IMG/VR virus record: IMGVR_UViG_3300035698_010795
Coordinates: 1-24,902 of that record
DNA from: a virus
Length of the DNA: 24,902 bases
Direction: 5' to 3' (one strand)
Shown: positions 2,434 through 24,902 of the stretch, one piece after another
Position numbering within the stretch: position 1 is the stretch's first letter
How the letters are laid out: every line of letters starts with the position of its first letter
The notes under the pieces: generated by a model
The model's database searches: none
Told to the model about the DNA's origin: nothing
The model's input: only the letters and a program-made list of their open reading frames with translations
Position numbers and translations under genes: made by a program

Positions 2434-2449
2434 TGAATAAATTAAAATA
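2434..2449 (+). promoter_or_regulatory. Candidate late-type promoter box (copy 1)
   Basis: The 16-base string TGAATAAATTAAAATA is shared exactly with 4551-4566, and its first 12 bases recur in reverse orientation upstream of the endonuclease gene. It contains ATAAAT, six of eight positions of the T4 late promoter TATAAATA. It lies just ahead of the ribosome site (TAAGGAG) of the gene starting at 2467. Promoter function is inferred from repetition, position and orientation. Confidence 0.4.
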
Positions 2450-2466
2450 TTAAGGAGCACGACTAA

Positions 2467-3507
2467 ATGAATCAAGAAATCTTAAACATAAATGAAAGAT
2501 ACTCAGCTAATTTGAAAGAGCAAGTATCAACAGGAGTCAATGAACCTCGTATGAAAGGTGCAGTTGAAGTCTTTGAGAAAGATAAAGAAGGTAAACTGAC
2601 TAAGATTGCAGAAAAAGATAATCTGATTGTTTACGGTGGTAGAGAATGGTTATTAAGAAGAGCCTTCGCTGGAGCTATTGCAGGTGATGATACTGAGATT
2701 TATGAAAAGACATTACGTTGGTTTTCAGTTGGTGCTGGTGGCGGTGAACCTGGTAACTCATTACAAGCCGGTGCTACTTATGGAAGTGATACTGAGTTAC
2801 TAGCTCCTGTTAGAATGAGAAGTGATTTAATACCAACTGATGTAGGTTATGATTTTTATGGTTCTGATTATAATGGTGACCATGGTTATTACAAACAATT
2901 CTCAAGTGTTACTATTAAAGAAGATAGAGGTAATCCCTATGTTGAAGATGCAGTAACAAAATACCCTCCTATCATTGCTGAGATAAGAATTGAATTATCA
3001 AGTGATGATGCTAATGGTGGAGCTTTTGAAGATTTAAATGAAGCTGCTTTATTTGTAGCTGATCCTACTGTAGATGATCCTGGTGAACAAACAGGAGCTG
3101 GTGGAGCTTTTTCAACTACATTGGATTGTATTAAAGTAGAGAAAGATGGCGATTATGCTATTTATACTTTAGATACTATTGATTTAGAAAATGAAGGTGA
3201 TCTATCCGGGTTGAATGTTGGTGATTATATATGGATAAATAGAGTAACAGGAACCGATAATACTATTTTACAGGATTCCCCTTTATTAATAGTAGACTTG
3301 TATAATGGTTCTGTTGGAAGAAGTGCTTATATTGTTGTTGACAAATCTGATGCAATCGGAGAGAGTCCTATTACTCCACCTGAGATGACTTGTAATTTTG
3401 TGGATAAAACAATAACTCCTTATATAATGTTTTCTCGTGTTACATTTTCGACCCTGAGGAAGACAATTGATAGAGAAATAGTATTCTTATGGAAGATTTA
3501 TTTCTAA
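2467..3507 (+). CDS. Unidentified virion structural protein, 346 aa
   Basis: The start is well supported by TTAAGGAG nine bases upstream. The product is acidic, soluble, and lacks a signal peptide or membrane segment. The N-terminal ~60 residues are charged, followed by KDNLIVYGGREWLLRRAF, then a long beta-rich region with many Asp/Gly/Thr residues and an ending rich in aromatic and basic residues (FSRVTFSTLRKTIDR). That ending looks complete, so the neighbouring endonuclease insertion does not appear to have cut it. I do not recognise a family. Placed between a fibre-like gene and the sheath, and closed by a strong terminator at 3528-3569, it is most likely a tail, collar or baseplate structural protein made late. 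The function is inference from position only. Confidence 0.6.
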   Translation: MNQEILNINERYSANLKEQVSTGVNEPRMKGAVEVFEKDKEGKLTKIAEKDNLIVYGGREWLLRRAFAGAIAGDDTEIYEKTLRWFSVGAGGGEPGNSLQAGATYGSDTELLAPVRMRSDLIPTDVGYDFYGSDYNGDHGYYKQFSSVTIKEDRGNPYVEDAVTKYPPIIAEIRIELSSDDANGGAFEDLNEAALFVADPTVDDPGEQTGAGGAFSTTLDCIKVEKDGDYAIYTLDTIDLENEGDLSGLNVGDYIWINRVTGTDNTILQDSPLLIVDLYNGSVGRSAYIVVDKSDAIGESPITPPEMTCNFVDKTITPYIMFSRVTFSTLRKTIDREIVFLWKIYF

Positions 3508-3527
3508 GATAAATTAGTATATTTATT

Positions 3528-3569
3528 AGGATCCAAGAATGATTTAAATATTGTTCTTGGATCCTTTTT
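3528..3569 (+). terminator. Rho-independent terminator after the 346-aa gene
   Basis: A perfect 12-bp stem (AGGATCCAAGAA at 3528-3539 pairing with TTCTTGGATCCT at 3554-3565) with a 14-base loop is followed by a short T run on the plus strand. The right arm and loop overlap the last codons and stop of the leftward endonuclease gene. On the minus strand no T run follows, so it should act mainly on rightward transcription. Confidence 0.8.
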
Positions 3570-4464
3570 CTACATTACTTGATTCTAATTCTTTTATCAA
3601 ATCTATAAAAGATAATTTAATTGTATCTGGATTATTTTCCCATTCTTTTTGTGAAACTCTGAATATGTTTAGATTATGGAGTTTATATATACCATCTTTA
3701 ATATTATCACGTTTTCGATGACACTTTTGAGTATGGTAAGGTTCATCGAATTCAATTACTATATCTAATTCCTCAATAAATCCATCTGGAAAACATCCGT
3801 ATATATTCTTTAATGGTCGAATTATTTCATAATTTGTCAATACCTGAAGGAATTCAAAAAATAATGGTTCTAATTTTCCTATAGTAGGAGATACAATGTT
3901 ACCATTTTTCATTTGGTCATTTAATCTATTTATTATTGTTTCCTTAGCCAACTCTCTGAATACTAGAGTTTTTGAATAATTATCAACCCCATATGTTTCT
4001 AATATAGTTTGAGTTGCTTTATCATTTAATTCTTTAGATGCAAAACCTACCCCACCATATTTATCCATACATGTATTTTGAATCTTTCGTTTGATATCAT
4101 CTGACTGTGTTGGAACTTCAACACCATGATTCTTTAAGCATGTGACTTTCTTTTTATGTTTAACAATTTCTATCTTAGATGGATTATCAACACCATATTT
4201 ATCATTCATTGTTAAACGATATTTCTGTTTGACAGTTTCACTTTTAAATATATTGTCAACTCCATACTTTTCCATTAAAGTTTTCTTAGTCTTATCTCTA
4301 CATACCTTACTTTGGAATGAATAATCAGTCCCGTAGTTCTTCAAACATGTCAATCTTTTCTTTTCTTTGACTTTAGGATCTTTATTACAATGACCTAAAA
4401 TATATCTAGATGTTTTTGTATTTACATATTTACCACATCCACACTCACATAATTTATCAATCAT
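3544..4464 (-). CDS. Homing-endonuclease-like protein (EDxHD/Vsr-type)
   Basis: Predicted free-standing mobile endonuclease that cuts DNA at intron- or gene-free sites and spreads by repair. The start at 4464 is chosen because AAGGAG lies seven bases upstream; the ATG ten codons earlier has no such site. The protein (306 aa) opens with a compact Cys cluster (CECGCG...GHC, residues ~6-26), likely a small zinc knuckle. Next come six ~25-residue repeats (~40-165) with the signature KYGVDN or close variants, probably helical DNA-contact units. The C-terminal ~90 residues carry VIEFDEPYH followed by RKRD, matching the Vsr-like EDxHD homing nuclease fold (I-Bth0305I type), with E, D, H and D as likely catalytic residues. 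It is encoded against the surrounding structural genes and carries its own promoter-like box. DNA target unknown. Confidence 0.8.
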   Translation of the reverse strand: MIDKLCECGCGKYVNTKTSRYILGHCNKDPKVKEKKRLTCLKNYGTDYSFQSKVCRDKTKKTLMEKYGVDNIFKSETVKQKYRLTMNDKYGVDNPSKIEIVKHKKKVTCLKNHGVEVPTQSDDIKRKIQNTCMDKYGGVGFASKELNDKATQTILETYGVDNYSKTLVFRELAKETIINRLNDQMKNGNIVSPTIGKLEPLFFEFLQVLTNYEIIRPLKNIYGCFPDGFIEELDIVIEFDEPYHTQKCHRKRDNIKDGIYKLHNLNIFRVSQKEWENNPDTIKLSFIDLIKELESSNVEKGSKNNI

Positions 4465-4481
4465 TACAACTCCTTTTTTAC

Positions 4482-4493
4482 TTAATTTATTCA
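4482..4493 (-). promoter_or_regulatory. Candidate promoter box for the endonuclease gene
   Basis: Read leftward this is TGAATAAATTAA, identical to the first 12 bases of the boxes at 2434 and 4551. It ends 17 bases before the ATG at 4464, directly upstream of the AAAAAAGGAG ribosome site. Its orientation matches the gene it precedes, although that gene lies on the opposite strand to the other two. Confidence 0.4.
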
Positions 4494-4550
4494 AAAGAAT
4501 TTTTTTATATGCGAATAAGAATTTTTATGAAAATTTTCCCAAAATGAACC

Positions 4551-4566
4551 TGAATAAATTAAAATA
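4551..4566 (+). promoter_or_regulatory. Candidate late-type promoter box (copy 2, sheath)
   Basis: Exact 16-base match (TGAATAAATTAAAATA) to 2434-2449. It lies 62 bases upstream of the sheath start, in the 164-base divergent intergenic space between the endonuclease and the sheath, where a promoter is needed because a terminator at 3528-3569 blocks readthrough. Promoter function is inferred. Confidence 0.45.
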
Positions 4567-4628
4567 ATAATCTTTGAGTAGAAGATAGAATTAAAGTAAT
4601 CATAACTTTTAAAAGAAGGAGAGTAGTT

Positions 4629-6809
4629 ATGGCATTAGGACAGCTGATTTCCCCTGGAGTTTATACCAGAATTATTGACTTGTCAGAGTACCTTGCAGAT
4701 GTTCCCGGCACGGTTGGGTTTGTGCCTATACTATCTAAAAAAGGTCCTGATAATAAATTGATGTTTGTTTCTAGTAAAGAACAATTTATTAATTTATATG
4801 GCGAACCAAATATTTTGGATTATGGTAAATATAATGGACAGGGACCATATGTTGCATGGCAGCATTTAAGTGCCTCTTCTCATTTATATGTATTAAGAGC
4901 TTTACCAGATGATGCAACATATTCGCATCTTAATATTGGTATGCAATTAGGTACAGAAGATGTTAGTTATTCATATTCAAGTAGCTCAGGCACAACTGAA
5001 TTTGAATTCTTACAAACAATAGCATTATTCCAAGATGGACAAAGTCATCCTAATCCTGGTAATACTCCTGATCCAATTACATATTTAACAACAAATCATG
5101 TAAGTAAATTAGAAACATTTTTACAAACTGAAGATACATCTCCTTACATGTACACATCTTTAACTGGTGGTACAGGTATTCCTGATGGTATCCTTTGTTA
5201 CTTCAGAGGTATAGGCCGTGGCTCATACTATAATAAATTAGCTATCAAAATTTCAAGTCACACTAATAACCAATTATTCGGTGTATACATTCTTGATATT
5301 TATGAAGAGCAATCAGATGGTGATGATGCAATTGTTGAATCATTCAATGTTTCCTTTGATCCTAGTATCGTTGATGATACTGGTGAATCTTTATATATTG
5401 AAGATGTAGTTAACAAATTCTCAAGTAGAGTTAAATGTTCTATTAATAGTCAAGCACTTATTAGATTAGATGAAGAAATGTTAGATTATTACCAGAATGA
5501 TCCTTCTCTTCCTGATGATGTTACTCGATTTGATGTACTCGATGAAAATGGTCAAAAGACTGTTTTAGGATACAAAGGTACTAGAATTGAATTTGCAAGA
5601 TTAGATTATGATTATACAGTTTCTGTTCTTGATGAAGCATTAACAGCACTTGATGTTGCTAGAGCTTTACCTACAGATACTTCAGCTAATATTCTTATTA
5701 GAAATGATGCAGTCTCTGTAGCTATTGATGATGTGAGTGATGCTAGATCAGAAGTTACAGCAGCAAAAAGAGATCTTGAAGATGCATATGCTTTAAATAT
5801 CATTGACTTGGGTGTTGATCCAATTCATTTTACTGAAGGTACTGAAGGTTCTTTAGTATATGAAGATCAAGATAGTGGTAAAACATTAGTACATCAAGAA
5901 ACTGCAACTCAAACTTTATCAGATGCTTATCTTGGTGAATTAGTTAAACCTGATAATGCTCCTAAATCTGATGGTACATGGAAAACTCAAATAGTTGATG
6001 ATGTATTTGATCTTGATTGGATCTACTTCTCATTAGTATATGATGCTGGATATCTTCCAGATGTCAAAAATTCAGCTAGAAAATTAGTTGATGAATTTAG
6101 ACGCGATTGTATGTTGATCAGTGATTGTGGTGATAATATTGATTATGAAGATACTGTAACTTATGTCGGTGGAAGTATAACTGATGTATCAGAAGTAGAT
6201 ACATATTCATGGAATACTAGATACGCAGCTAGATATGAATCTTATAGCAGAGTATATGATTCATTTACTGGTAGAGATTTATGGGTAACTCCTGTATATC
6301 ATATGGCACAAGTAATTCCACTAAGTGATAGATTATATGAATTATGGTATGCTCCTGCTGGATTTAATAGAGCGACATTAAGTGATATTAAAGAATTAAG
6401 ATGGAGTCCTAAATTAGGTGAGAGAGATGGTTTATACTTAAATCAAGTTAACCCAATCGTTCATTTCCCTGAAGGTTATACTGTATGGGGTAATTTAACT
6501 TCTCAAAAGAGACCTACAGCATTACAAGATGTGAATATTATGAGATTGGTTCTTTATATTAAAAGAGCTTTAGAACAATATTGTAAGTTCTTTATATTTG
6601 AGTTCAATGATGCAGTAACGCATGATCAAATCAAGAGAGGGATTGTTCCTTTCCTTGATAGGATCCAGGCTAAAAGAGGTTTGGTTAGTTATGCTGTTGA
6701 TGTTGGTGCAGATGAATATGAATTCAAAAATAAAATATGTCATGTAAATGTCACACTTGAACCTACTAAGGTTATCGAGAAGATTGAACTTAACTTATTT
6801 GTAAAATAA
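4629..6809 (+). CDS. Contractile tail sheath protein (T4 gp18-like)
   Basis: Forms the outer contractile cylinder of the tail, stacking as hexameric rings on the tube and shortening on infection. The N-terminus (GQLISPGVYTRIIDLSEYL, then GTVGFVPILSKKGPDNKL) and the C-terminal ~120 residues (QDVNIMRLVLYIKRALEQYC, KRGIVPFLDRIQAKRG and a final beta strand ending in NLFVK) are typical of gp18-type sheath interlocking domains. At 726 aa it is somewhat longer than T4 gp18 (about 660 aa). Residues ~328-392 form an Ala/Asp/Leu-rich, coiled-coil-like insert in the outer part. Start supported by AAGAAGGAGAG. It is followed by a hairpin at 6815-6844 and then the tube gene, the usual sheath-tube order. 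Confidence 0.95.
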   Translation: MALGQLISPGVYTRIIDLSEYLADVPGTVGFVPILSKKGPDNKLMFVSSKEQFINLYGEPNILDYGKYNGQGPYVAWQHLSASSHLYVLRALPDDATYSHLNIGMQLGTEDVSYSYSSSSGTTEFEFLQTIALFQDGQSHPNPGNTPDPITYLTTNHVSKLETFLQTEDTSPYMYTSLTGGTGIPDGILCYFRGIGRGSYYNKLAIKISSHTNNQLFGVYILDIYEEQSDGDDAIVESFNVSFDPSIVDDTGESLYIEDVVNKFSSRVKCSINSQALIRLDEEMLDYYQNDPSLPDDVTRFDVLDENGQKTVLGYKGTRIEFARLDYDYTVSVLDEALTALDVARALPTDTSANILIRNDAVSVAIDDVSDARSEVTAAKRDLEDAYALNIIDLGVDPIHFTEGTEGSLVYEDQDSGKTLVHQETATQTLSDAYLGELVKPDNAPKSDGTWKTQIVDDVFDLDWIYFSLVYDAGYLPDVKNSARKLVDEFRRDCMLISDCGDNIDYEDTVTYVGGSITDVSEVDTYSWNTRYAARYESYSRVYDSFTGRDLWVTPVYHMAQVIPLSDRLYELWYAPAGFNRATLSDIKELRWSPKLGERDGLYLNQVNPIVHFPEGYTVWGNLTSQKRPTALQDVNIMRLVLYIKRALEQYCKFFIFEFNDAVTHDQIKRGIVPFLDRIQAKRGLVSYAVDVGADEYEFKNKICHVNVTLEPTKVIEKIELNLFVK

Positions 6810-7645: not shown

Positions 7646-7680
7646 TATATTATAATTAGGAATTTTAGAATTTTTGGGAT

Positions 7681-7720
7681 TTCTCCTCTTTTAATTAAAA
7701 AGAATATTAAAAGAGGAGAA
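7681..7720. other. Perfect 15-bp inverted repeat in tube-chaperone gap
   Basis: TTCTCCTCTTTTAAT (7681-7695) pairs perfectly with ATTAAAAGAGGAGAA (7706-7720) across a ten-base loop. There is no T run after it on either strand, so it is not a textbook terminator. It could mark an mRNA processing or stability point below the abundant tube message. The rest of the 129-base gap contains ATAAAT at 7731-7736 and the ribosome site CTAGGAG for the next gene. Confidence 0.55.
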
Positions 7721-7774
7721 AGAACAAAACATAAATGAATTACATTAAATTAAAAATACTAGGAGTTATTAAAC

Positions 7775-9933: not shown

Positions 9934-9965
9934 TCTGAACAAACTATAAAAGGGTTTTAATCAAT

Positions 9966-12900: not shown

Positions 12901-13073
12901 TAACAAGAGAGACTAGTGGTGTAAAATATTGTGAATTACTTGAACCTGCAGTTGATATTGTATTTGATTATGAAATAAAAGATTTAGAGCAAGAAGACTT
13001 AATCGACTATACTCCTCAACATACAGGATTTACTCATGATACAATTGAGATAGACATAGTAAATAAATTATGA
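9966..13073 (+). CDS. Baseplate wedge protein (T4 gp6/baseplate J-like)
   Basis: Large wedge subunit that ties neighbouring wedges together in the baseplate ring. The N-terminal ~120 residues (EKIRLQLIQFAKEYLDLETV, DFYKTSVISYIIDSLSIL, EAQMQESVYNLARWIGYEVP) are the hallmark of gp6-type proteins, and ELFFGNGIVGKQPAQNSVV with ASIGGGDTPSLPEVKRNAI is the baseplate-J core motif with its conserved Gly-rich loop before the helical arm. It is 1035 aa, well above T4 gp6 (about 660 aa). The extra material includes a beta-rich insert after residue ~550 marked by a Ser-rich stretch (SSTSSSSVLSSSS). A possible late-promoter-like TATAAAAG lies at 9945-9952, and AAAGGG serves as ribosome site. The next gene overlaps by four bases. 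Confidence 0.88.
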   Translation: MKLDNFNKLVGDGVNIYGSREKIRLQLIQFAKEYLDLETVDFYKTSVISYIIDSLSILSANHLFYDSVIYREFFMVEAQMQESVYNLARWIGYEVPKAVPSKVDVLFTVPLSFQSEDVIFTIPNDYKAVADGIPFTIDSISDSTQATKFSLDRQLLTEQIDNSTVATGSLINNSALTVRDSNGLFLPIFLSQDGKNASFSMAFTQQEKTLFQFVIPSGIQPYQFYTKILDYVGMISSINVWVAEPNAGDRIPLTPDVVDNFDPNTRVNTQRGDVIEWNLWNESLHGIYTMAPQSEEYVVVTGINKGELFFGNGIVGKQPAQNSVVTIELFVTQGENGHVIPNSITKGDTLKYSVNPNYVYDYDTGQYNTTSGDNTTRPHTITYSVMNPSASIGGGDTPSLPEVKRNAIINLRVKERLVSESDYDDINIIMGDSFPTVEAYPILKRSDIKVNEIIAFILLMYHDENYLPQIVPTRNAKFPVYDPDFVDGKYTILRTSEVNVDDENYQTLYNITMDLDTMSASYDYILQNIIGSPVTLYNEREPSWYQQYAYIPIANVDMDIELNSEDGSSTSSSSVLSSSSIYALKVKVNVNHIATSPDSDYKVLEFRCRMITKWDSNEEYDQTLVYTVKDTNNEDVYKYFEFEIPNYLNVPVETQRFEFHIDGYAILRNSKGLYVNELGEVLTTGESPTEGWQPVTSYYADILVRKDLSNVMKSEITSTTIWDGVVHPDSIRYDIHNTPVILSHYLDDGSTGGVLNRSDNAQYPNFEINVMQALMKNLDIDEKRMLTDFINVKFPDTYGRLNNLRYNPIDYTVRSRFVTPFEIECPEDITFLGGAAYCSSSSATVDETIRYIVNGIVPNYENSQIELASYINYIAEFFPSDGGSGVWFLTEPTRGTYVKVEDEVDSEGREKIIVYNGTNWIDVQSMEIPLRIKLKVQLDPSTTTEGSKLKDKIKDNLISYFSSKMGIHKSLDRSEIITITRETSGVKYCELLEPAVDIVFDYEIKDLEQEDLIDYTPQHTGFTHDTIEIDIVNKL

Positions 13074-14194
13074 AAAGAATATATTCCCAGAAGAACCAAG
13101 TAATTTCTGAAATTGATCACAAGAGTCTGCATAATTTTATACTCAATAAGATCAGTAATGAATTTTCAAATATGGTAGAAAGTTGTTACTATCCGAAGAT
13201 TGCTGAGATTAAAAGAGAGTTGTTTTTCAGGACCAATTCCAACGAAAAAGAACTTTTAAAGTATTCCAAGCAAAAATATAAGGGAATGAAATTTAACCTC
13301 TTACATGATCCTTTTACCACACTTTTGATACTGATTACGCAGGAGTTTTTACTTAATAAGGATCTTGCAGCAGCGGAAGCTACGTTCCATTTATTTTCAT
13401 TGAGATTCTATACTAATCTACTATATACTTTCACTACTAAAAAAGGAAGTAGGCATCCTTTATGTCTTCCTGATGCATGGCAAACAGCTTTAGATAGATT
13501 GTCAAGAAACCATATGTTCTCGAAACAAAAAACAATTCCTAATAGTGTAATATATTTTTCAAGAGCAGTATTTAAAATATACATGAAAGATTTGATAAAT
13601 AATGATTCAGATAGAATCTTTAGAATGATATATTCACTCAGGAATAGAATTAAACAATCCATGAAAAGTTTCTTCCATCACTATTATGATAGTATAGAAG
13701 AGAAGAAACAAAGTAAAACCGATATCAATGATAAAGAATCTTATGATCCAGCACATGAAACTAAACTAAAAATGTATTCTGCTAGAATTTCAAAGGATAT
13801 GTGTGTGTACAGGAAGATAGATGAATCAGCTATGAGACATGCTTCATCATTGATAAAATTCAATAAAAAATTATCTAAATTATATGTTGATAAATTATCA
13901 ACTTCTAAATACTCAGATGAAGTAGAAACAGCTATATATCTATTAATGGAAAATGTTAAAGACTCGTCTATATTCAAAACAACAAAATTTTTAGATCATG
14001 TACAAAAGATGATGTCTATTAAAGTTACTAATAAACAAGTATATTTTAAGAAAGCAATTACTGATATACATACTCAAATTATCAAAGACTCTGATTTAGA
14101 GAAATGGTATAATGGTCTATCAATTCAATCTAAAGCAATATCAAGGAATTTTATAGCGTATTATATCGCTTTCTTTTTAAAGAATTATCTTTAA
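13070..14194 (+). CDS. Unassigned helical protein, 374 aa, last gene of unit
   Basis: Starts in an ATGA overlap with the gp6-like gene and has no clear ribosome site, so it is probably translated by coupling, which ties its dose to gp6. The product is basic, Lys/Ser/Phe-rich and predicted mostly helical, with no signal peptide and no known catalytic motif. Recognisable landmarks are FTTLLILITQEFLL (~80-95), PLCLPDAWQTALDRL (~130) and VIYFSRAVFKIYMKDLI followed by an arginine-rich helix (~165-200). I do not recognise a family. Operon position suggests a baseplate or tail component. Its stop codon interlocks with the stop of the convergent gene at 14191. Confidence 0.6.
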   Translation: MKRIYSQKNQVISEIDHKSLHNFILNKISNEFSNMVESCYYPKIAEIKRELFFRTNSNEKELLKYSKQKYKGMKFNLLHDPFTTLLILITQEFLLNKDLAAAEATFHLFSLRFYTNLLYTFTTKKGSRHPLCLPDAWQTALDRLSRNHMFSKQKTIPNSVIYFSRAVFKIYMKDLINNDSDRIFRMIYSLRNRIKQSMKSFFHHYYDSIEEKKQSKTDINDKESYDPAHETKLKMYSARISKDMCVYRKIDESAMRHASSLIKFNKKLSKLYVDKLSTSKYSDEVETAIYLLMENVKDSSIFKTTKFLDHVQKMMSIKVTNKQVYFKKAITDIHTQIIKDSDLEKWYNGLSIQSKAISRNFIAYYIAFFLKNYL

Positions 14195-20321: not shown

Positions 20322-20358
20322 GTTAAAACCTCAACTTTATTTTATTTTTGTTCTGAAA

Positions 20359-23435: not shown

Positions 23436-23488
23436 AAAATTCCTTTAAATATTATATTCCTATTTTTGTATTTGTTCTTTATTTCAAG

Positions 23489-24571: not shown

Positions 24572-24902
24572 AAGAACCTCCTTATTATTTTTAAAGTTAA
24601 CGGCAGTATGTAAAACATCTAATCCCAAAACTAAATATTTCAAAACCCATTAAGAAATATTTAATCGGACTGCCATGATTCTAGTAGATTTGTAAGATCA
24701 ATATTTACTACAAATGAATGTGTATCTATCACCTTAATTACCGATCAAGATCGGCGTATAGTCATTGAAGATATGTTTTACCAATCTCCATACTTTTTGA
24801 TGAACTGAGAGTTATTATTAGTTAGTTCGAATACTAGTTTCCACTAAGCCAACTCACAATGCAGTATTTAAATCTCTATTCATTTATTAATATATATAGA
24901 TA
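24572..24902. other. Gene-free leader of the leftward unit
   Basis: About 330 bases with no open frame of note on either strand. It is AT-rich. Contents: a 7-bp inverted repeat, ATTTGTA paired with TACAAAT across 14 bases, near 24684-24711; a short CCGAT/ATCGG hairpin near 24743-24757; the candidate promoter at 24831-24859; and ATAAAT read leftward at 24882-24887. No tRNA could be folded. Most likely a long untranslated leader or regulatory gap; a small RNA is possible. Confidence 0.5.
24831..24859 (-). promoter_or_regulatory. Candidate sigma70-like promoter, leftward
   Basis: Read leftward, TTGTGA (24854-24859) and TAGTAT (24831-24836) are separated by 17 bases, resembling the -35 and -10 hexamers of host housekeeping promoters with two mismatches in each. 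It lies about 260 bases ahead of the first gene of the leftward unit. In an AT-rich genome such matches arise by chance, so this is weak. Confidence 0.3.

What the first reader, a model, noticed from the sequence alone, without database searches (positions are those of the whole stretch)
2434..4566. A 12-base box repeated upstream of three genes, oriented with each gene
TGAATAAATTAA occurs at 2434 (+), 4551 (+) and 4482-4493 (-), each upstream of a gene start and pointing toward it; the two plus copies match over 16 bases. The box includes ATAAAT, six of eight positions of the T4 late promoter TATAAATA. ATAAAT also occurs at 7731-7736 ahead of the chaperone gene and leftward at 24882-24887. 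This may be the late promoter of this phage and shows the inserted endonuclease gene bearing the same control signal. Sharing is seen; promoter function is inferred.
Basis: partly seen in the sequence, partly recalled or inferred. Interest (0 to 1): 0.6.

Follow-up and report, generated by a model that had tools for sequence, protein, structure and literature searches.

The report
Promoter box of RNA-polymerase-encoding large phages

Summary
In detail: TGAATAAATTAA lies at 2434(+), 4551(+) and 4482-4493(-), each just upstream of a co-oriented gene. It is one form of a larger signal, GAAYAAA followed by AAA (Y = C or T), found in 7 of 14 upstream regions of the window (0 of 3000 shuffles). Relatives confirm it: ten phages share an invariant GAATAAATTAAAA before the tail-sheath gene while the flanks diverge, and de novo motif search in relatives returns GAATAAATTAAAAA, GAACAAATATTAAA, GAACATATTAAAAA or AATAAATTAAAA, co-oriented with genes and rarely closer than 21 nt to a start codon. 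A promoter role is well supported, though no transcript was mapped. The T4-late reading is not: the core differs from TATAAATA, which is not enriched, and no gp55 sigma factor is found; a distant relative that has gp55 shows TATAAATA instead. The box tracks phages encoding a multisubunit RNA polymerase with unsplit beta and beta' genes (61 of 79 such loci). Most likely it is the -10-like element of a promoter read by that polymerase, resembling the AR9 late promoter AACA-(6N)-TA/G but in phages that probably have T-containing DNA. The specificity factor is unidentified. The endonuclease gene does carry the same signal.

The parts
2435..2447 (+). Promoter box GAATAAATTAAAA upstream of the 346-aa virion-protein gene (ATG 2467, 32 nt from the G)
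   Evidence: the 345-aa orthologue in G002 has GAATAAATTAAAA 39 nt from its ATG
4480..4492 (-). Promoter box GAATAAATTAAGT upstream of the endonuclease gene (ATG 4464, 28 nt from the G); overlaps a probably unused TTG start at 4494
4552..4564 (+). Promoter box GAATAAATTAAAA of the tail-sheath gene (ATG 4629, 77 nt)
   Evidence: 13 of 13 positions invariant in 10 phages
4530..4536 (+). AAANTTT element 15 nt before the sheath box, invariant in the sheath promoters of the near relatives
7722..7728 (+). C-type box GAACAAA upstream of the T4_baseplate (gp26-like) gene (ATG 7775, 53 nt)
   Evidence: orthologues in G003, G006, G010 have GAATAAATTAAAA there
9937..9943 (+). C-type box GAACAAA upstream of the gp6-like baseplate wedge gene (ATG 9966, 29 nt)
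   Evidence: same in G006, G007, G010
20347..20353 (-). C-type box GAACAAA upstream of the 309-aa gene (start 20321, 32 nt)
23471..23477 (-). C-type box GAACAAA upstream of the 440-aa gene (start 23435, 42 nt)
3544..4464 (-). Inserted endonuclease gene (DUF7487 / homing endonuclease family) carrying its own box
   Evidence: PF24308 1.3e-31; phrog_3339 homing endonuclease 2.4e-16
3528..3565 (.). 16-bp hairpin with T tail between the convergent 346-aa gene and the endonuclease gene (intrinsic terminator candidate)

Best explanation
The box is the conserved -10-like element of a phage promoter with consensus GAAYAAA followed a few bases later by AAA; the window uses both the T form, GAATAAATTAAAA, and the C form, GAACAAA. 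By its spacing to Shine-Dalgarno sites and start codons, transcription would start about 11-13 nt after the G, inside the A run, giving short leaders that can begin just before the ribosome-binding site. The likely reader is the phages' own multisubunit RNA polymerase (unsplit beta' and beta genes found in relatives) working with a specificity factor not yet identified, not host polymerase with a T4 gp55-type factor. The endonuclease inserted next to the sheath gene carries its own copy, so it can be expressed independently, against the direction of its neighbours. Shown: motif, orientation, spacing, conservation, co-occurrence with polymerase genes in relatives. Inferred: promoter activity, start site, identity of the polymerase, timing.
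For: Clade A: GAATAAATTAA 24 sites, 22 intergenic and co-oriented within 150 nt of a start; the reversed word 1 and 0. EM converged on this motif, also from unrelated seeds, in clade A (45% of 129 upstream regions), clade B (37% of 160), and found it in G017 and G012. Sheath promoter: 13/13 columns invariant in 10 of 10 phages amid variable flanks; C-type box at the sheath gene of more distant relatives. Sharp lower limit of distance and, in beta loci, a mode at 23-25 nt. Polymerase link: beta and beta' in G011, G012, G017; 11 of 18 further beta-bearing contigs carry this sheath family; in 79 beta loci GAACAAA upstream 104 times against 9 reversed and 2 reverse-complement, 61 of 79 loci having it; motif also in G032 and G035. 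Control: the gp55-bearing relative without beta (G023) shows TATAAATA and no GAACAAA excess.
Against: No transcript 5' ends exist. The window is a 24.9-kb fragment without a polymerase gene, and no fragment of the nearest clade contains one, so the link is by kinship. The specificity factor was not found. G011 encodes the polymerase but gave no clear motif. The gp55 contrast rests on one independent genome. A polymerase and a motif may share ancestry without acting together.
Confidence: 0.7

Rival explanations
1. T4-type late promoter: host RNA polymerase carrying a phage gp55-like sigma factor reads a TATAAATA-like element.
For: ATAAAT inside the T-form box matches six of eight positions; the structural proteins and terminase are of T4 type.
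Against: A third of clade A sites and nearly all clade B sites have C where T4 has T; G and AA before it are almost invariant; TATAAATA is not enriched in clade A, B, G012 or G032; no phrog_234 or Sigma70_r2 hit in these contigs whereas G023 has gp55 and TATAAATA.
Confidence: 0.07
2. Promoter read by host RNA polymerase with a host sigma factor, possibly helped by a phage activator.
For: AT-rich -10-like element; a phage fragment cannot show which enzyme acts.
Against: No general -35 element in the motif models; sigma-70-like sites are no more frequent than in shuffles (43 against 49.6); the motif follows phage kinship and polymerase carriage across many samples.
Confidence: 0.15
3. RNA-level or mobile element: a translation signal, or a repeat spread by the endonuclease or by recombination.
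For: The box often lies just before Shine-Dalgarno sites; two of the three copies flank the endonuclease start.
Against: Distance to the start codon ranges from 21 to 87 nt; the box stays invariant at the sheath gene in phages with no insert (G001, G003, G006); only about 13 bases are shared, with unrelated flanks.
Confidence: 0.04
4. Chance repetition in AT-rich DNA.
For: Some 12-mer is expected three times in such a window; two-mismatch matches are at chance level.
Against: Position, orientation and conservation in relatives.
Confidence: 0.01

Closest known systems
AR9 (PBS1-type) late promoter AACA-(6N)-TA/G, read by the non-virion multisubunit RNA polymerase with gp226 (PMC5312081, PMC9209446)
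   Same: AACA core on the non-template strand in the C form, a further element about 10 nt downstream, use at virion genes, in phages encoding multisubunit polymerase; the core GAACA stays while the following bases vary between genomes (G032 GAACATAT, G017 GAACAAAT).
   Different: Preceded by G; position 3 of AACA may be T in the window's clade; the spacer is conserved; the downstream element is AAA, not TA/G; the AR9 464-aa sigma-like subunit has no detectable homologue by sequence; thymidylate synthase or dUTPase genes in relatives suggest T- rather than U-containing DNA; beta and beta' are single unsplit genes.
T4 late promoter TATAAATA with gp55
   Same: Single -10-like AT-rich element without a general -35; the T form shares ATAAAT.
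   Different: GAA at the 5' side, C allowed at position 4, no gp55 found, own polymerase in relatives.
phiKZ late promoter (TATG at the start site; PMC7598289)
   Same: Own multisubunit polymerase in jumbo phages.
   Different: No TATG element seen; here a strong motif is found by sequence alone, which that review says fails for middle and late promoters of known polymerase-encoding jumbo phages.
Free-standing homing endonuclease genes with their own phage promoter in T4-like phages (own knowledge)
   Same: Endonuclease inserted between structural genes with its own promoter.
   Different: The promoter is of the GAAYAAA kind; DUF7487-type endonuclease.

Membership tests
T4 late promoter | TATAAATA core | tested here: not met
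   Consensus GAAYAAATTAAAA; TATAAATA not enriched
T4 late promoter | gp55-type sigma factor encoded by the phage | tested here: inconclusive
   phrog_234 and PF04542 absent from polymerase-bearing and near-clade contigs, present in G023; near-clade contigs are fragments
AR9-type nvRNAP late promoter | AACA at -11 to -8 | tested here: inconclusive
   GAACA core in clade B, G017, G032, G035 and 4 of 7 window sites; AATA in the rest; start sites unmapped
AR9-type nvRNAP late promoter | TA/G at the start site after 6 nt | tested here: not met
   AAA instead at that spacing in the motif models
AR9-type nvRNAP late promoter | uracil in place of thymine in the template strand | tested here: inconclusive
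   ThyX in G012 and G040, dUTPase in G017 and G040 suggest T-DNA; base content not measurable here
AR9-type nvRNAP late promoter | gp226/gp68 specificity subunit | tested here: inconclusive
   phmmer with the AR9 464-aa subunit: no hit; these subunits diverge beyond sequence recognition
Promoter of a phage multisubunit RNA polymerase | beta and beta' encoded in the same lineage | tested here: met
   G011, G012, G017 and 11 of 18 further contigs join polymerase and this sheath family; not seen in the window itself
Promoter of a phage multisubunit RNA polymerase | polymerase initiates at the box | not testable with these tools
   needs in vitro transcription or 5' end mapping
Sigma-70 promoter | TTGACA and TATAAT 16-18 nt apart above chance | tested here: not met
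   43 found, 49.6 in shuffles

The most novel reading that the evidence does not exclude
A widespread, undescribed group of large phages with T4-type virions uses its own unsplit multisubunit RNA polymerase with a distinct promoter code (GAAYA...AAA) in place of the T4 gp55 system. The AACA core is recognised much as in AR9, perhaps on the template strand, but in T-containing DNA, by an unknown specificity factor.
Probability: 0.3. Interest if true: 0.75.

Novelty: new variant of a known kind. Interest (0 to 1): 0.58.

Why it matters
Middle and late promoters of polymerase-encoding jumbo phages are reported not to be predictable by bioinformatics (PMC7598289). Here a strong promoter motif is found by sequence alone and follows the carriage of an unsplit phage RNA polymerase, with one gp55-bearing relative showing the T4 motif instead. 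It gives a direct way to annotate transcription units in uncultivated large phages, a test case for how a promoter code changes when a virus changes polymerase, and a search target for a new specificity factor.

Tried and rejected
Own-genome search: the window is the whole 24.9-kb virus record, so nothing more of this genome is held. Terminase as bait found no viral-contig relatives. T4 gp55 by phmmer gave only sub-threshold hits to the 374-aa family at 13070-14194 (E 0.24-0.33 and worse); an AlphaFold model (pLDDT 86, all helical) has no significant Foldseek match and only weak VIA matches (best Z 3.9), with no sigma factor standing out, so a sigma role was dropped without being excluded. A phrog_12791 hit in G011 proved to be a false lead to a multi-copy family. 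Conserved genes next to beta in 79 loci have no recognisable sigma domain. YerA41 has its own polymerase but showed no such motif in 22 upstream regions. Literature: no paper found reporting GAACAAA or GAATAAAT as a phage promoter of this kind, though short strings search badly. Moraphages (PMC12619734) are said to lack RNA polymerase and are not this group.

Full report
What was claimed and what is there. A 12-mer found three times is not rare by itself in this window (about 1.8 such words expected), but one shared by three upstream regions is: 4 of 5000 simulations. Loosening the match to two mismatches destroys the signal, because the true motif is not a fuzzy version of the 12-mer.

The real motif. 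The window is a complete IMG/VR record of 24,902 bases and cannot be extended. The tail-sheath protein (4629-6809) retrieved relatives at 54-70% identity and then more distant ones at 25-50%, and whole contigs were fetched. In 12 near contigs (clade A, 258 kb), GAATAAATTAA occurs 24 times, 22 of them intergenic and pointing at a start within 150 nt; the reversed word occurs once, never upstream. K-mer counting found a second word, GAACAAA, about as enriched as GAATAAAT (27 against 3.2, and 33 against 2.6 expected). EM motif search merged them, also when started from unrelated seeds: clade A tt.tGAAtAAATtAAAAA (C in 31%, T in 68% at position 4), clade B aGAACAAATattAAAa, G017 TAGAACAAATAttAAA, G012 AAtAAATtaaAA. 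In the window 7 of 14 upstream regions hold GAAYAAA against 1.0 expected (0 of 3000 shuffles reach 7).

Evidence that it is a promoter. (i) Orientation: in 79 loci chosen only because they encode RNA polymerase beta, GAACAAA upstream of genes occurs 104 times, its reverse complement 2 times, its reversal 9 times. (ii) Distance: from the G to the start codon the values in those loci pile up at 23-25 nt and few are under 21; clade A and B show similar lower limits. That is expected if a transcript begins about 11-13 nt after the G and must still hold a Shine-Dalgarno site. Longer distances are allowed (77 nt at the sheath gene), which argues against a translation signal. (iii) Conservation: before the sheath gene of ten phages 13 of 13 box positions are invariant while most neighbouring columns fall to 0.4-0.7, with a second invariant AAANTTT 15 nt upstream. 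In more distant relatives the sheath gene has the C form. (iv) Orthologous genes swap forms: the gp26-like gene has GAACAAA in the window and GAATAAATTAAAA in G003, G006 and G010, so C and T look like variants of one element. No transcript was mapped; promoter activity remains an inference.

Why it is not the T4 late promoter. T4 needs TATAAATA and gp55. The near-invariant GAA, the C form, and the lack of TATAAATA enrichment (4 upstream of 53 in clade A) do not fit. No gp55 (phrog_234) or Sigma70_r2 match was found in any near or polymerase-bearing contig tested, although fragments limit this. The internal control is G023, a distant relative with gp55 and no beta subunit: there the same procedure returns TAAATA.TT, TATAAATA is enriched (14 against 3.0) and GAACAAA is at chance (4 against 4.15). 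That is one independent genome only.

Which polymerase. G012 (321 kb) has two beta'/beta pairs, G017 and G011 one each, all with beta' and beta as single unsplit genes. Eleven of 18 further large beta-bearing contigs also carry this sheath family. In two of them, G032 (207 kb) and G035 (224 kb), EM gives taGAACAtAtTAaAAA and aGAACAAAttaaAAA. The most constant part across genomes is GAACA plus an A run about ten bases on. AR9's non-virion polymerase reads AACA-(6N)-TA/G (PMC5312081), on the template strand and only with uracil (PMC9209446). The likeness is real but short, and differs at the start-site element; ThyX or dUTPase genes in relatives argue against uracil DNA, and no gp226 homologue was found by sequence. 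I therefore say it works like a phage-polymerase promoter of the AR9 sort, and do not file it as a member.

Inserted endonuclease. The gene at 3544-4464 is a DUF7487/homing-endonuclease family protein. The gap before the sheath gene holds such a gene in the window, G002, G004 and G008 and none in G001, G003 and G006. In several relatives the box precedes the endonuclease or a short ORF directly before it (G004, G008, G009, G010).

Limits. Gene starts were called by a simple script; contigs are fragments; clade A polymerase genes were not seen, only those of kin; G011 has the polymerase without a clear motif, so the association is strong but not complete. Whether the promoter acts late, middle or throughout is unknown.

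Noticed in passing
L091:8567-15967 and L093:3950-10240 (G012): Two complete beta'/beta pairs of unsplit multisubunit RNA polymerase in one 321-kb phage that also has this T4-like sheath family; jumbo phages of T4 type are described as lacking RNA polymerase (PMC7824862).
   Followed up: partly
window 4530-4536: AAANTTT lies 15 nt before the box at the sheath promoters of the near relatives and hardly elsewhere, like an upstream element of a strong promoter.
   Followed up: partly
window 3508-4628: The gap before the sheath gene is an insertion hot spot: different endonuclease genes in the window, G002, G004 and G008, none in G001, G003, G006.
   Followed up: partly
L046:9056-9598, L106:15874-16695: The AR9 274-aa protein encoded next to the polymerase specificity subunit (phrog_20045, unknown function) has homologues in G002, G010, G012, G015, G018 and G022.
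   Followed up: no
window 13070-14194: Conserved 374-aa all-helical protein whose gene overlaps the gp6-like gene by 4 bases, found in 17 of the related contigs, without a significant fold match.
   Followed up: yes
window 7680-7721: 16-bp AT-rich hairpin (-19.3 kcal/mol) directly before the C-type box of the gp26-like gene; no T tail on the plus strand.
   Followed up: no
G023, gp55 at 95466-95780 (L191): A distant relative with gp55 and the T4-type TATAAATA motif, useful as a contrast for a polymerase switch.
   Followed up: yes
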